The position numbers and the translations under genes were made by a program. A stretch of 44,662 nt of DNA. It comes from a virus. Positions 5,740 to 28,694 of this stretch are shown piece after piece. The stretch covers positions 1-44,662 of IMG/VR virus record IMGVR_UViG_3300046692_000223, one strand, 5' to 3'. The notes beneath the pieces are model-generated. The model saw nothing but the letters and a program-made list of their open reading frames with translations. It made no database searches and was not told the DNA's origin. The first letter of the stretch is position 1; each line of letters starts with the position of its first letter.

Positions 5740-5921
5740 AGCCCGAACGCCTCATCGAAGGAGTTACGACCTTCCACCGGGCGCGACCCATCGGTCAAGA
5801 TGATCAGGCGTCCGTCCGTGCCTATCTCGACCCGGGGAGCTGGCACGCCAGCGGCTTTCGCCGCGCGGATCGCCCGGGTTATGTCGATCTGCCTGAAGCG
5901 CGCCGGCCTTCCCACCGTCAC
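5736..5921 (-). CDS. Small protein coupled to integrase, possible excisionase-like factor
   Basis: This 61-aa basic protein starts at a GTG overlapping the upstream stop. Its N-terminal helix (RQIDITRAIRAAKAAGV) is followed by a beta pair (RVEIGTDGRLIIL) and a short tail. Short proteins of this pattern commonly precede integrase genes in alphaproteobacterial prophages. The position suggests a recombination directionality factor, but no excisionase winged helix is evident, so this is inference. Confidence 0.65.
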   Translation of the reverse strand: MTVGRPARFRQIDITRAIRAAKAAGVPAPRVEIGTDGRLIILTDGSRPVEGRNSFDEAFGL

Positions 5922-23443: not shown

Positions 23444-25648
23444 ATGGAGACACAGCCGGATGATGACACGGACAACGAGGCGGAGGAGTCCGACGCCACG
23501 CATTTGTCCGAGGTCCATGCCCGCGCGATGGAGCGCTTCTCCGATTTCAAATGTCAGGTCGAGATCCGTGCGGAGTCGCTGCAGGCCCGTCGCTTCGTGT
23601 CGATCCCAGGCGCTCAATGGGAAGGCGAATGGGGCCTTCAGTTCGAGAACGGCATCCGTGTTGAGGTCAACAAGACGGCGCGCGGGCTGGAGAAGATCGA
23701 GACGGACTATCGCGCCAACCGGCTGACCGTCGACTATCGCGCCGTGTCCAACGATGCGAACGACCACACGGCATCCACGCTCGATGGTGTGCATCGCGCC
23801 GATGCCTACCACTTCAAATCGCAACAGGCACGGGACAATGCGTTTCAGGAGGCTGTCTCGGGTGGCTTCGGTGCCTATCGCCTGACCACGGACTATGCCG
23901 ACCCTTACGACAAGGACAGCGACGAGCAGCGGGTGAACCCCGGCATGGTCATCGTGGATGCCGACCAATCGGTGTTCATGGACCTGAACAGCAAGCTCTA
24001 CGACAAGTCCGATGCGAAGTTCGGCTATGTGCTGACGGCGATGACCCGGCAGGCATTCACGGCCGAGTATGGCGCTCATCGCGCAGCCGATTGGCCGTCG
24101 AACCTGATCAAGCCATGGTACGACTGGTACACGCCCGACATCGTTCGCATCGCCGAATATTACGAGGTCGAGGACACCGACGAGAAGCTGTGGATCTTCA
24201 CCAATCCGGTAAGCGACGCTTCGCAGCGCTGGTTCGACAGCGAGATCGAGGCGCAGGCGCGTACCGATCTCGTCACCCAGGGATGGAAGCAGTCAAGCCG
24301 TAAGGTCAAGCGCCGCCGCGTCCACAAATATGTGATGTCCGGCGCCGAGATATTGGAGGATAACGGCTATATTGCCGGCTCCTGCCTCCCGATCGTCTGC
24401 GTCTATGGCAAGCGCTGGTTCATCGACAATATGGAGCGGTGGCGCGGCCATGTGCAGCTCGCGATGGATTCTCAGCGCATCTACAACGCTGAGGTCTCCA
24501 AGCTCGTCGAGACGAGTTCTCTGGCACCCCGCGAAGTCCCGATCGTCACGCCCGGCCAGATTGCCGGCCATGAAAGCGCATGGGCCGACCAGAACCGTAA
24601 TCGCTCGCCCTATTTGCTGCTGAATCCCACGGTCGACGCGAACGGCAATGAGATTCCCACGCCGCCCATCGGTTCGATCAAGCCGCCAGACGTCCCCCAG
24701 GTTACCGCGGCGCTTCTCCAGATCGCCAGCAATGACCTGACCGAGGTCACGAACAGCGAGGATGGCGCCGACGAGGTTGTTTCGAACACCTCACATGCTG
24801 CGATGGACCTTGCCGCGACGCGCACCGATGCGAAGTCGGGCATCTACATGGACAATATGCGCCAGTCCGTGCAGCGCGAGGGCGAAATCTATCTAGACAT
24901 GGCCAAGGAGGTCTATTTCGAGCCGGGCCGCAAGGTGGAGACGCTGGGCGAGGACGGTGAGGAGGGCACCGAAGTCCTGCATGAGGGATTCACCGACGAA
25001 ACCGGCCTGTACATGATTCGCAACGATCTCCAGCGCGGCAAGTACAAGGTCATCTCGGACGTGACCGAGGCGACCAGCACGCGCCGCGACAAGACCGTGA
25101 ACCAGATGCTGAACGTCGCACAGGTGGCGACCGCCGGGCAGGACATGGAGCTAGCCTCTGCCGCCCTGTCCGTGGCCGTGCAGCAGATGGACGGCGAGGG
25201 GCTGGACGAGCTTCAAGCGTGGAACCGTCAACGGATGCTCAAGATCGGGCTCGCGAAGCCGACGCCGGAAGAACAGGCACAGATGGAGCAGGCGCAGAAC
25301 GCCGATCAGCAGCCCGACCCCGCGCAGACCGCGCTACTGGCACAGGCGGCCGAACTGGCGGCATCGGCGGACCTGAAGAAGGCGCAGGCGGCCAAAGCTG
25401 AAGCCGATACGCAGCAGTCGAAGGCCAAGACCGTGCTGACCCTGGCGCAGGCAACGGCAGTCGGCGGGCCGGAGAGTGCTCCTTCGGGAATGCGCCCCGC
25501 CGAATCGCCACTCGATCAGGCGAAGAAGATTGCCGAGATCCATCACGTCGCGCGCAAGACGACCGCGATCGACGATGCACACAGGATTGCCGCCCACGAC
25601 GCACAGACGCGCCGTATCGCGGCGGAAAGGCCGGCTGGTACGGCCTGA
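23444..25648 (+). CDS. Portal protein, P22 gp1-like
   Basis: This 734-aa protein (P22 portal 725 aa) forms the dodecameric ring through which DNA enters and leaves the head. Typical P22-portal blocks are the early IEIRAESLQARRF-like region, VEVNKTARGLEKIETDYRAN, a PIVCVYGKRWFIDNMERWRG-type core and STRRDKTVNQMLNVAQVAT. The C-terminus (about 615-730) is Ala/Gln-rich and helical, like the barrel of P22 that reaches into the head. The start follows a GGGGAT stretch. Confidence 0.92.
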   Translation: METQPDDDTDNEAEESDATHLSEVHARAMERFSDFKCQVEIRAESLQARRFVSIPGAQWEGEWGLQFENGIRVEVNKTARGLEKIETDYRANRLTVDYRAVSNDANDHTASTLDGVHRADAYHFKSQQARDNAFQEAVSGGFGAYRLTTDYADPYDKDSDEQRVNPGMVIVDADQSVFMDLNSKLYDKSDAKFGYVLTAMTRQAFTAEYGAHRAADWPSNLIKPWYDWYTPDIVRIAEYYEVEDTDEKLWIFTNPVSDASQRWFDSEIEAQARTDLVTQGWKQSSRKVKRRRVHKYVMSGAEILEDNGYIAGSCLPIVCVYGKRWFIDNMERWRGHVQLAMDSQRIYNAEVSKLVETSSLAPREVPIVTPGQIAGHESAWADQNRNRSPYLLLNPTVDANGNEIPTPPIGSIKPPDVPQVTAALLQIASNDLTEVTNSEDGADEVVSNTSHAAMDLAATRTDAKSGIYMDNMRQSVQREGEIYLDMAKEVYFEPGRKVETLGEDGEEGTEVLHEGFTDETGLYMIRNDLQRGKYKVISDVTEATSTRRDKTVNQMLNVAQVATAGQDMELASAALSVAVQQMDGEGLDELQAWNRQRMLKIGLAKPTPEEQAQMEQAQNADQQPDPAQTALLAQAAELAASADLKKAQAAKAEADTQQSKAKTVLTLAQATAVGGPESAPSGMRPAESPLDQAKKIAEIHHVARKTTAIDDAHRIAAHDAQTRRIAAERPAGTA

Positions 25649-25683
25649 CGGCAACCGTTGCGCCGTAAGCAGCGAGTGAAGGA

Positions 25684-26523
25684 ATGAACATGGCGACCGA
25701 TCCAAGCACGATTATCGAAGACGAGCCGCTTGAGCTTGATGTGAACGATATCATCCAGCCCGAAGAGGGCGCGCCCACCCCCGAAACTGAGGAAGATGCC
25801 GAAGAGACGATCGTCGGCTTCGGCGAGGATGGTGACGGCGATGATGACCAAGGTGGCACCGATCTCGTTCGCCACATGCGCAGCGAGTTCAAGCGCGTTC
25901 AGGCCGAGAATCGCGAACTGCGCGCCCGCCTGCCCGTCGACAAGCCGATCGATGCGGGGCCGAAGCCCACGCTCGAAAGCCTCGAATGGGACGAGGAGAA
26001 ATTCGAGGCCGCCTTGCTCGCCTGGAATGACCGCACGCGACAGGCCAAGGACAGCCAGACCGAAGCGCAGCGTCAGCAGGAAGCCATTCAGGAGCAGTGG
26101 CAGGCCGAACTGGCGAGCTACAACGAGAAGAAGGTCGCGCTGAAGCTGCCCGACTTCGACGATGCCGAGACGACGGTGAAAGCCTCACTCGATGCCATGC
26201 AGCAGACCGTGTTGATCAAGGCATGCGCCAATCCGGCTGCCGTTGTCGCAGCGCTCGGCAAATCCCCGGGCCGCCTGACGGACATCGCGAAGATCAAGGA
26301 TCCGATCAAGCTGGCGGTCGCGCTCAATAATCTGGAAAGGGACGTGAAGGTGACCACCCGCAAGAAGCCGCCGGCTCCGGAATCGCATGTGCGTGGCGCC
26401 GCGCCACTGTCCACCGGCAATAGCGACAAGCGCCTTGCCGAACTGGAGAAGGAGGCGGATCGCACGGGGGATCGGTCCAAGGTTATCCAATATCGGCGCG
26501 AGCAGCGTGCATCGGCGTCCTGA
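25684..26523 (+). CDS. Scaffolding protein, P22 gp8-like
   Basis: This 279-aa protein guides coat assembly and leaves the procapsid. The N-terminus is very acidic (EDGDGDDDQG near 50), the middle is helical, PAAVVAALGKSPGRLTDIAK (about 178-197) is a recurrent scaffold block, and the C-terminus is a short basic helical hairpin (about 247-279), the type that binds coat in P22. It lies between portal and coat as in P22. Confidence 0.85.
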   Translation: MNMATDPSTIIEDEPLELDVNDIIQPEEGAPTPETEEDAEETIVGFGEDGDGDDDQGGTDLVRHMRSEFKRVQAENRELRARLPVDKPIDAGPKPTLESLEWDEEKFEAALLAWNDRTRQAKDSQTEAQRQQEAIQEQWQAELASYNEKKVALKLPDFDDAETTVKASLDAMQQTVLIKACANPAAVVAALGKSPGRLTDIAKIKDPIKLAVALNNLERDVKVTTRKKPPAPESHVRGAAPLSTGNSDKRLAELEKEADRTGDRSKVIQYRREQRASAS

Positions 26524-26538
26524 ACAAGTCGCTTGCTC

Positions 26539-26555
26539 TGCCTAAAAAATAGGCA
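26539..26555. repeat. Late palindrome copy 2 (TGCCTA-N5-TAGGCA)
   Basis: Exact repeat of the 17-bp unit before the portal, here in the 130-base gap between the scaffold stop and the coat start. GCTACGA follows four bases after it. Confidence 0.8.
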
Positions 26556-26582
26556 TATTGCTACGACCACGCCACCCAGCGC

Positions 26583-26646
26583 CCCCTGCTGTGAAGGGGA
26601 GATCGGCGATCCCGGCAAGACCGGGCTGATCTCAACACAGCAGGGG
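26583..26646 (+). promoter_or_regulatory. Nested hairpin sequestering the coat ribosome site
   Basis: An 11-bp perfect outer stem (26583-26593 with 26636-26646) encloses GAGATC/GATCTC (26599-26604 with 26628-26633) and an inner CCCGG/CCGGG hairpin (26611-26625). The 3' strand of the outer stem ends AGGGG, seven bases before the coat ATG, so the Shine-Dalgarno is paired. This suggests control of coat translation, or protection of the message. Confidence 0.7.
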
Positions 26647-26653
26647 CATTCCC

Positions 26654-27913
26654 ATGGCAAACAGCTTTTCCAAGCAAGAGACGGTCGCGTTCGAGAAGGT
26701 CTTCGAGAAGTTCGAAGACGCGCTGGTGATCTCGAACCTGTTCAGCAAATATATCATCCCGAATGTGCTGGCAGAGCGCTCCGGCAACACTGTCTGGCGC
26801 CCGATGCCCTACATCGCGCAGTCGTTCACCGGCATCGACCAGAGCGCCAACTTCGCGCGCAACTACACGCAGCTTTCGGTGCCGACCACGCTCGGCTATT
26901 CGCACTCGGTGCCGCTGACCCTGTCCGCGACCGAGCTTCGCGACATGCTGCAGGAAGAGCGCCTGGGTGAAGCCGCGCTGCAGCGTCTCGCGAGCGACAT
27001 CAACGTCGATTGCTCGAATCTCGCTGCCCTGACCGGCACCATCTTCGTGAAGCGCGCCGCGGCCGCGAGCGGCTTCGATGACGTAGCCGCGATCGACACC
27101 AAGCTCAACAATCTGGGCGTCCCGATGAGCGAGCGCAGGCTCGTCCTGTCGTCGGCCGACTATAACGGCATGGCATCCAACCTGGCCGCCCGCACGCTCG
27201 GGCAGAGCGCCAAGTCGCTCAACGCCTATGAGATGGCCAAGGTCGGCATGGTCGCGAGCTTCGACACCTACAAGCTCGACTATGCCTATCGCCTCACCGC
27301 TGCGGCGGGTTCGGGCATCACGCTCAACGCCGCCAACCAATATTACACGCCGAAGGCGACTTCGACGGCGGCGACCGGCGAGACGAGCAACGTCGACAAC
27401 CGCTATCAGTCGATCACGGTCAACTCGACCACGAGCGTCAAGGCGGGCGATGCGTTCACCATCCTGGGCGTGAACGAGGTCCATCACATCACGAAGCTGG
27501 ACACCGGCTCGCTCAAGACGTTCCGCGTCATCTCGGTGACCAATTCCACCACGATGGTCATCTCGCCGCCTATCATCTCGGCAGGCGGCGGCACCGATCC
27601 CGAGCTGCAGTACAAGAACGTTACCGCGACGCCGACCAGCACGGCGGCGATCACCTTCCTCAACACGGTATCCGGACCGGTCAATCCGTTCTGGCAGGCC
27701 GACGCATTCGAGATCGTGCCGGGGCAGTACATGCCGCCGCCCGATGTCGGCATGGCCACGATGAAGGCGACCACGACCAACGGCGTCACCGTGCTGATGA
27801 CCCGGCAGGGCGCGATCGGGGATCTCAGCACCAAGTACCGCTGGGACGTGTTCTTCGGCCTTGTGAACAAGCAGCCGGAGATGACCGGCGCCGAGATGTT
27901 CTCGCAGACCTGA
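26654..27913 (+). CDS. Major coat protein, P22 gp5-like
   Basis: This 419-aa protein (P22 coat 430 aa) has the HK97-type fold with a P22-like insertion domain. Recognisable parts are FEKFEDALVISNLFSKY near the start, GNTVWRPMPYIAQSF, DMLQEERLGEAALQRLASDI (spine helix region), then a beta-rich insertion (about 230-320) and a closing TRQGAIGDLSTKYRWDVFFG. It is preceded by a strong RNA hairpin covering its ribosome site. Confidence 0.92.
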   Translation: MANSFSKQETVAFEKVFEKFEDALVISNLFSKYIIPNVLAERSGNTVWRPMPYIAQSFTGIDQSANFARNYTQLSVPTTLGYSHSVPLTLSATELRDMLQEERLGEAALQRLASDINVDCSNLAALTGTIFVKRAAAASGFDDVAAIDTKLNNLGVPMSERRLVLSSADYNGMASNLAARTLGQSAKSLNAYEMAKVGMVASFDTYKLDYAYRLTAAAGSGITLNAANQYYTPKATSTAATGETSNVDNRYQSITVNSTTSVKAGDAFTILGVNEVHHITKLDTGSLKTFRVISVTNSTTMVISPPIISAGGGTDPELQYKNVTATPTSTAAITFLNTVSGPVNPFWQADAFEIVPGQYMPPPDVGMATMKATTTNGVTVLMTRQGAIGDLSTKYRWDVFFGLVNKQPEMTGAEMFSQT

Positions 27914-27930
27914 ATCCAGGAGGCAGTCCG

Positions 27931-28104
27931 ATGGAATTCCCCGCAACGCTCTACAAGGTCGGCACCGCCTTCGAATGGGATGGCGCGACGTTCGACTTCC
28001 TCGTCGTCAATGACAGCGAGGAGGCGGACGCCGCCGCCAAGGATGGCTGGTCGATCGGCAAGCCCGTGCCGAAGTCCGCATCGGCGAAGAAGGAACCCTC
28101 GTAA
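27931..28104 (+). CDS. 57-aa protein after coat
   Basis: This short gene has a perfect AGGAGG before its ATG, so strong translation is expected. It is a small beta-rich unit (TLYKVGTAFEWDGATFDFLV) with an acidic middle and a Lys/Ser-rich tail. Its stop overlaps the next start (TAATG). A minor head component is possible but not shown. Confidence 0.65.
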   Translation: MEFPATLYKVGTAFEWDGATFDFLVVNDSEEADAAAKDGWSIGKPVPKSASAKKEPS

Positions 28105-28694
28105 TGGCATCGTCGACCGCAAAATCCTTCCGCGTCACTACGCTCACGGTCCCTGCCGGGTCCAAGCTGGCGACCTATAGCGGCCTGAGCTACAGCGTCG
28201 ACTATGTAGCCGCCTTCTCGAACGAGCCGCCGGCTACGCTGAATTCGTTCAGCGGCTCCGGCGCGAACACCACCGCTGCGTTCTCCAACGACACGGTGGT
28301 GACGATCACGGCAGGCGATGCGGCGGTAATGTACGCCGTGGGCGTCGCCCCGGTGGTCTATGACCGGGTGGGTTACCAGCCGACCCCCGGCACGCTGAAC
28401 GCGACCGGCACGCTGACTGCGGCGCTGATCACGGGCGGCATTGTCACGTCGACGACGGCAGCGGCCGTGGCTGCGACGCTTGAAACCGGGGCCACTCTCG
28501 ATGCGGCGACCGCCATGTCGATCGGCGACAGTTTCGATTGGAGCGCGATCAACACGGGCGGCAACACCTTCACGGTGACGGCTTCGACCGGCCACACGAT
28601 CGTCGGCGTCGCTGCGGTAGTGACCGTCACGTCGGGGCAGTTCCGCACCCTGAAGACCGCTGCGGCGACGTTCGTCACCTATCGCATATCGTAA
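28104..28694 (+). CDS. Putative head decoration protein
   Basis: This 196-aa protein is rich in Thr, Ala, Gly and Val, with almost no charged residues and alternating hydrophobic patterns that predict beta structure throughout. Place right after coat and composition fit a decoration or head-fibre protein. No family was recognised. Confidence 0.62.
   Translation: MASSTAKSFRVTTLTVPAGSKLATYSGLSYSVDYVAAFSNEPPATLNSFSGSGANTTAAFSNDTVVTITAGDAAVMYAVGVAPVVYDRVGYQPTPGTLNATGTLTAALITGGIVTSTTAAAVAATLETGATLDAATAMSIGDSFDWSAINTGGNTFTVTASTGHTIVGVAAVVTVTSGQFRTLKTAAATFVTYRIS

What the first reader, a model, noticed from the sequence alone, without database searches (positions are those of the whole stretch)
26583..26653. 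Long nested hairpin that buries the coat gene's ribosome binding site
An 11-bp perfect outer stem, a 6-bp middle stem and a 5-bp inner stem fold one 64-base unit. The 3' strand of the outer stem is the AGGGG Shine-Dalgarno of the major coat gene, which is the most highly made virion protein and should not normally be repressed. Feedback by scaffold or coat, a switch by a late factor, or a processing/stability role could explain it.
Basis: partly seen in the sequence, partly recalled or inferred. Interest (0 to 1): 0.72.

Follow-up and report, generated by a model that had tools for sequence, protein, structure and literature searches.

The report
Paired pseudoknots controlling phage head genes
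In this P22-like phage and many relatives, a small knotted RNA fold sits just before the start of the scaffold gene, and in a subset (this phage included) also before the coat gene, where the same letters can instead form the long hairpin that hides the coat ribosome site, so the pair looks like an unrecognised RNA switch that balances the two proteins that build the virus head.

Summary
The hairpin is real: 11-bp stem 26583-26593/26636-26646, with the coat Shine-Dalgarno (SD) in its 3' arm. Its length alone is unremarkable (about 1.35 such repeats expected in the window). What is conserved is something else that uses the same 5' arm: an H-type pseudoknot (26577-26599) with extensive compensatory changes. 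59 of 206 coat leaders carry a strict pseudoknot, against 0-2 in shuffles. In 22 aligned cores every pair holds, with 21 double-sided changes and no single-sided ones. The outer hairpin also co-varies, in about a third of lineages. So there are two mutually exclusive folds: pseudoknot (SD freer) and hairpin (SD buried, thermodynamically favoured). The same motif lies 11-25 nt before the scaffold start codon in 86 of 146 scaffold leaders, the window included (25649-25674), with stronger covariation and no competing hairpin. A strict scan of the whole window finds these two sites and no others. Rfam has no match. Best reading: a leader-pseudoknot translational control system shared by scaffold and coat genes, probably read by a trans-acting factor (unassembled scaffold protein is the first candidate). 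Structure is shown; two-state control is supported; factor and sign are inferred.

The parts
25649..25674 (+). Pseudoknot before the scaffold gene: P1 CGGC 25649-25652 / GCCG 25662-25665; P2 CGTTGC 25656-25661 / GCAGCG 25669-25674 (one G-U); followed by AGT
25679..25683 (+). Scaffold Shine-Dalgarno AAGGA, just 3' of the pseudoknot
   Evidence: sequence
25690..26523 (+). Scaffold gene (PHROG 648); ATG 25690 fits the SD better than the listed ATG 25684
26577..26599 (+). Pseudoknot before the coat gene: P1 CAGC 26577-26580 / GCTG 26588-26591; P2 CCCCT 26583-26587 / AGGGG 26595-26599; L1 GC 26581-26582; L3 TGA 26592-26594
   Evidence: (model built without the window finds it as top hit, E 2e-4); covariation of the motif
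26600..26632 (+). P3/P4 hairpin between pseudoknot and SD: 26600-26607/26625-26632 and 26612-26615/26621-26624; compatible with both folds
   Evidence: P3 swap test z -6.4
26583..26646 (+).
26642..26646 (+). Coat Shine-Dalgarno AGGGG
   Evidence: sequence
26654..27913 (+). Major coat gene (P22 coat family, PHROG 283)

Best explanation
The coat leader is a two-state translational control element. SHOWN by covariation: (a) a compact H-type pseudoknot (P1 + P2) at 26577-26599; (b) in this and about a third of lineages, a competing long hairpin that uses the 3' strand of P1 and the 5' strand of P2 to bury the SD; (c) the same pseudoknot motif directly before the scaffold gene, without a competing hairpin. 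INFERRED: the pseudoknot is a recognition site for a trans-acting factor, most likely a head-assembly protein (unassembled scaffold protein first, coat second). In the scaffold leader the pseudoknot ends 15 nt before the start codon, so a bound factor would block ribosome entry. In the coat leader the hairpin (OFF) is the more stable fold by about 10 kcal/mol in the window by a crude estimate, so binding to, or early co-transcriptional formation of, the pseudoknot would release the SD (ON). One factor could thus lower scaffold synthesis and raise coat synthesis and so tune their ratio.
For: Pseudoknot: 59/206 coat leaders against 0-2 in dinucleotide shuffles and 1 on the reverse complement; 22 gapless cores 100% paired, 21 double-sided and 0 single-sided changes, covariation score 0.404 vs 0.108 shuffled. 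Unbiased check: 22/22 distinct hits of a pattern that left the inner P2 free have fully Watson-Crick P2, against 40% if strands are reassorted. A model built without the window puts 26577-26605 first in it. Competing hairpin: swap test z -6.5, upstream controls null, 15/43 better than shuffled arms at p<0.05. SD opening costs 8.25 kcal/mol without and 4.84 with the pseudoknot, against 3.1 in leaders lacking it; shuffling the pseudoknot region lowers it to 4.98, Wilcoxon p 5e-7. Scaffold copy: 86/146 leaders; 29/69 anchored sites pair with their own partner against 1.7 when swapped, 21 distinct P2 duplexes. Position is tied to the downstream AUG (11-25 nt, mode 17), not to the upstream stop (-53 to +237 nt). 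Strict scan of 44,662 bases: two sites, scaffold and coat leaders, none on the minus strand. Nested (OFF) fold favoured or tied in 41/43 coat leaders, pseudoknot favoured in 60/86 scaffold leaders by a crude energy model.
Against: No factor, binding, expression or probing data. The outer hairpin is absent in many leaders that keep the pseudoknot, and shows no co-variation in one class (class D, z +1.0), so two-state switching is not universal. In scaffold leaders the pseudoknot does not change SD accessibility (3.4 vs 3.2 kcal/mol, p 0.24). 'Pseudoknot = ON' for coat and 'bound pseudoknot = OFF' for scaffold is a guess at sign. Phage P22, where scaffold self-control was described, shows no convincing copy.
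Confidence: 0.55

Rival explanations
1. Constitutive ribosome-recruiting or standby element: the pseudoknot next to the RBS attracts the 30S subunit (for example through ribosomal protein S1) or keeps the RBS upstream edge tidy, with no regulation; the coat copy counteracts an accidental hairpin.
For: Fixed distance to the AUG (mode 17 nt), presence at the genes for the most abundant head proteins, no change of SD accessibility in scaffold leaders.
Against: The hairpin that buries the coat SD co-varies and so seems to be kept, not accidental; loop and 3' flank positions are conserved beyond stem pairing (L1 ending in C, AGA/AGU after P2).
Confidence: 0.2
2. mRNA processing or stability element: the pseudoknot plus hairpin blocks a 5'-3' exonuclease (RNase J in alphaproteobacteria) or offers an RNase III site, so that scaffold and coat messages are made separately and last longer.
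For: Compact pseudoknot followed by a helix; long leader insert (median gap 151 nt with the coat pseudoknot, 21 without).
Against: Does not explain the tight distance to the start codon in scaffold leaders or the co-varying SD pairing in coat leaders.
Confidence: 0.12
3. Plain SD-sequestering hairpin as first read, with the pseudoknot unimportant.
For: It is the MFE fold in the window.
Against: The pseudoknot co-varies more strongly and more widely than the hairpin (P2 z -12, P1 z -12.3, outer stem z -6.5) and occurs alone at scaffold genes.
Confidence: 0.05
4. Small-molecule riboswitch with a pseudoknot aptamer.
For: Pseudoknot with some conserved loop positions and a translational expression platform.
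Against: Core of 23-26 nt with variable stems and few invariant loop bases; found at scaffold and coat genes; no Rfam match.
Confidence: 0.04
5. Frameshift or readthrough stimulator acting on the gene upstream.
For: H-type pseudoknots can stimulate recoding (general knowledge), and in the window the portal stop codon abuts the scaffold pseudoknot.
Against: Distance from the upstream stop codon to the pseudoknot varies from -53 to +237 nt.
Confidence: 0.01

Closest known systems
T4/T2/RB69 gene 32 autoregulatory pseudoknot (PMC3014915)
   Same: H-type pseudoknot in the mRNA leader of a dsDNA phage gene for an abundant protein; autogenous translational control there, proposed here. The review says it may be the only viral pseudoknot used this way.
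   Different: The T4 pseudoknot lies 67 nt upstream and nucleates cooperative binding over an unstructured A+U-rich RBS; here it abuts the scaffold RBS, or is joined to the coat RBS by a hairpin with a competing fold, recurs at two genes, and no binding protein is known.
P22 scaffolding protein autoregulation (Casjens, King, Wyckoff and co-workers, 1978-1985; from memory, not held in the library)
   Same: Same gene order and protein families; scaffold synthesis reported to be turned down post-transcriptionally by unassembled scaffold.
   Different: P22's own scaffold leader shows no convincing pseudoknot of this kind, and the P22 coat start overlaps the scaffold stop.
Phage lambda cIII mRNA (RNase III binding relieves a translation-inhibitory structure, PMC2777011)
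   Same: Phage leader with alternative folds, one blocking translation.
   Different: No pseudoknot that I know of, different gene, switched by RNase III.
H-type pseudoknot riboswitches (preQ1-I, SAM-II; general knowledge)
   Same: Compact H-type pseudoknot linked to SD accessibility.
   Different: There the ligand-bound pseudoknot usually hides the SD; here the pseudoknot frees it in the coat leader, and the stems vary too much for an obvious shared small-molecule pocket.
Ribosomal protein operators with pseudoknots (S15 rpsO is mentioned in PMC3014915)
   Same: Autogenous translational operator with a pseudoknot.
   Different: Different sequence and genes; host, not phage.

Membership tests
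Any described RNA family (Rfam 15) | Covariance-model match | tested here: not met
   No match at E<=5 to the leaders in window 25500-28500 other than a chance snoRNA hit inside the scaffold gene; none at gathering score in 15 related loci
H-type pseudoknot | Two interleaved helices P1 and P2 with compensatory changes in both | tested here: met
Gene-32-type autogenous pseudoknot operator | Pseudoknot upstream of the RBS of the regulated gene | tested here: met
Gene-32-type autogenous pseudoknot operator | Bound by the protein it encodes, which represses its own translation | not testable with these tools
   needs binding and reporter experiments
Gene-32-type autogenous pseudoknot operator | Unstructured A+U-rich repeats between pseudoknot and start | tested here: not met
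   window 26600-26653 is mainly a G+C-rich hairpin
Bistable mRNA switch (lambda cIII type) | Two mutually exclusive folds, both conserved | tested here: met
   pseudoknot and outer stem each co-vary and share 26583-26593; the second holds in a subset of lineages only
Bistable mRNA switch (lambda cIII type) | Change of fold alters translation | not testable with these tools
   only computed SD accessibility is at hand
Recoding pseudoknot | Fixed short distance from a slippery site or stop codon | tested here: not met

The most novel reading that the evidence does not exclude
One phage protein, most likely free scaffold, reads the same pseudoknot at two genes with opposite outcome: it blocks scaffold translation where the pseudoknot abuts the RBS and opens coat translation where the pseudoknot displaces an SD-burying hairpin, giving an RNA-based ratio control for capsid assembly.
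Probability: 0.2. Interest if true: 0.92.

Novelty: new variant of a known kind. Interest (0 to 1): 0.8.

Why it matters
Scaffold and coat must be made in a set ratio for phage heads to assemble, and post-transcriptional self-control of P22 scaffold synthesis was described decades ago (from memory) without an RNA element known to me. A widespread covarying pseudoknot before the scaffold genes of P22-like phages, copied to the coat gene in some, gives a concrete and testable RNA site for that control. It is also present in cultured phages of E. coli (CUS-3, Skarpretter, C130_2), Kosakonia, Pseudomonas and Sphingopyxis, so it can be tested at the bench. If confirmed it would be a rare case of a phage pseudoknot operator after T4 gene 32, and the first that I know of in capsid assembly.

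Tried and rejected
A pairing of the start codon with CGCCA upstream of the pseudoknot looked conserved by eye but failed the swap test (z -0.5). A first DNA pattern was mis-spaced and found nothing; the corrected one found 26 contigs, with a coat ORF found just downstream in the newly fetched ones that were long enough to check. A pseudoknot in P22 itself: candidate CGGC-GUGU-GCCG-ACAC has too short loops and is not kept in the related phage APC_JM3.2. Frameshift or readthrough role rejected by variable spacing. Known riboswitch and ribozyme families: no Rfam match. The weaker model hits in the window (38321, 27369, 28459) were not supported by the strict consensus scan. Literature searches found no report of this element; the library holds open-access papers only.

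Full report
WHAT IS THERE. The window is a 44,662-base virus record with a P22-type head module: large terminase, portal 23444-25648, scaffold to 26523, coat 26654-27913. Between scaffold stop and coat start lie 130 bases. The local fold is more stable than all 200 shuffles (z -3.6), but a perfect 11-bp repeat of that spacing is expected about 1.35 times in the window by chance, so the hairpin cannot be judged from one sequence.

RELATIVES SHOW A PSEUDOKNOT. Coat homologues were fetched from IMG/VR, from one genome per species of bacteria and archaea, and from annotated phages. Many of their leaders share a compact H-type pseudoknot: P1 (CAGC/GCUG in the window), a loop L1 of 2-4 bases, P2, at most one base, the 3' strand of P1, a loop L3 of 3-7 bases, the 3' strand of P2, then AGA or GAG. 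Under strict rules 59 of 206 distinct leaders have it, against 0-2 after dinucleotide shuffling and 1 on the reverse complement. Among 47 representatives under 80% identical, P1 takes 13 forms and P2 27 forms. In 22 gapless cores that exclude the window, all 176 cells pair, with 21 double-sided and no single-sided changes. Because that set was picked partly by pairing, I also used a pattern that left the inner P2 positions free: all 22 distinct hits pair fully, against 40% if strands are reassorted. A covariance model built without the window has 26577-26605 as its best hit in the window (20.2 bits, E 2e-4). In 396 genomes of the host order of a Novosphingobium prophage, the exact pattern occurs once, 36 nt before a coat gene, and the reversed control pattern never.

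THE HAIRPIN IS THE COMPETING FOLD. I tested whether that arm matches its own SD region better than the SD regions of other leaders: z -6.5 over 43 representatives, 0 of 5000 permutations; segments upstream of the pseudoknot give z +0.7 and -1.1. The effect is carried by about a third of lineages (15 of 43 at p<0.05 against shuffled arms), including distant ones (window, L010, L057, L157, L246, L252); it is absent from one class with purine-rich P2 (class D, z +1.0). In some leaders without this stem the SD is paired by another local partner (for example L002, L009, L176). Opening the SD costs on average 8.25 kcal/mol without the pseudoknot and 4.84 with its nucleotides withheld; leaders of coat relatives without a pseudoknot cost 3.1. 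In the window the figures are 15.8 and 5.9. Shuffling only the pseudoknot region drops the cost to 4.98 (p 5e-7). With a crude energy for the pseudoknot, the nested fold is favoured or tied in 41 of 43 coat leaders (median 8.7, window 10.4 kcal/mol). The pseudoknot should form first during transcription because all its parts are upstream (inference).

THE SAME MOTIF STANDS BEFORE THE SCAFFOLD GENE. A model search of whole phage records found second copies about 1 kb upstream. A systematic look found a pseudoknot before the scaffold start in 72 of 144 leaders (shuffles 1-3, reverse complement 10), and in 86 of 146 with somewhat wider rules. With only GGC-N9-GCC as anchor and P2 free, 29 of 69 sites pair with their own downstream strand against 1.7 on average after swapping, in 21 distinct duplexes; the P2 swap test gives z -22. 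The 3' end of P2 lies 11-25 nt (mode 17) before the AUG and is mostly followed by AGU, AGA or AGG; the distance to the upstream portal stop ranges from -53 to +237 nt. So the element belongs to scaffold initiation and is not a recoding signal. In these leaders the SD is not sequestered, the arm does not co-vary with it (z +1.1), and the pseudoknot is usually the favoured fold (60 of 86). In the window this copy is 25649-25674, CGGC aac CGTTGC GCCG taa GCAGCG. A strict consensus scan of both strands of the whole window returns just two sites, the scaffold and the coat leader. Cultured phages with a scaffold copy include CUS-3, Skarpretter, C130_2, Kosakonia Kc259, Pseudomonas PfAn1 and Sphingopyxis VSN-002; VSN-002 also has the coat copy.

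HISTORY. Where the coat pseudoknot is present the scaffold-coat gap has a median of 151 nt; without it, 21 nt. In P22 the genes overlap by one base. The simplest history is an ancestral scaffold pseudoknot and a later copy, with an added P3 hairpin, before coat; this was not tested with a tree.

HOW IT MOST LIKELY WORKS. Two genes for partners in one assembly reaction carry the same knotted element close to the ribosome site. I take it as the target of a trans-acting factor. Free scaffold is the first candidate because P22 scaffold is known (from memory) to turn down its own synthesis after transcription. Next to the scaffold RBS a bound knot would block initiation, comparable with gp32 of T4 (PMC3014915). 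In the coat leader, holding the knot would keep the SD out of the hairpin, so the same factor would favour coat. The opposite sign, or a role in ribosome recruitment, cannot be excluded.

LIMITS. Swap tests and shuffles do not model the tree of the sequences beyond clustering at 80% (coat) or removal of near-duplicates (scaffold); energies ignore tertiary contacts; some scaffold starts in fragments were mis-set, so frequencies are rough; no expression data; the papers searched are open access only.

Noticed in passing
window 26540-26554: A small hairpin GCCTA-AAAAA-TAGGC lies between scaffold stop and pseudoknot; near-identical hairpins occur at that place in L029 and L042, and different hairpins (GGTAT..ATACC, CCCTA..TAGGG) in others. 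Function unknown.
   Followed up: no
L011, L015, L020, L100, L131, L157, L162, L169 coat leaders: A class of leaders has an extra conserved 5' hairpin of the form TTCGCC...GGCAGT about 30-50 nt before the pseudoknot.
   Followed up: partly
L031, L032, L034, L035, L051 coat leaders: A further leader class with a long conserved structure ending on the SD but without a clear pseudoknot of this geometry.
   Followed up: no
L006, L013, L026, L030 around the coat start: The coat reading frame seems to run on upstream into an N-terminal extension with a hydrophobic stretch (for example in L013 a frame reading MKKKPVLLRIAAGIMAASYMAGLAVRDAMFAHLHKNGMILGANSF), instead of starting at the usual position.
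   Followed up: no
L057 (minus strand, 5852-5879): A pseudoknot-like site stands before a 68-aa ORF between portal and scaffold, so a third gene may carry the motif in that phage.
   Followed up: partly
window 10239 and 10294: The only other perfect inverted repeat of 11 bp or more with a short spacer in the window.
   Followed up: no
window 25684 and 25690: Two in-frame ATGs start the scaffold gene; the second fits the SD and the pseudoknot spacing better.
   Followed up: partly
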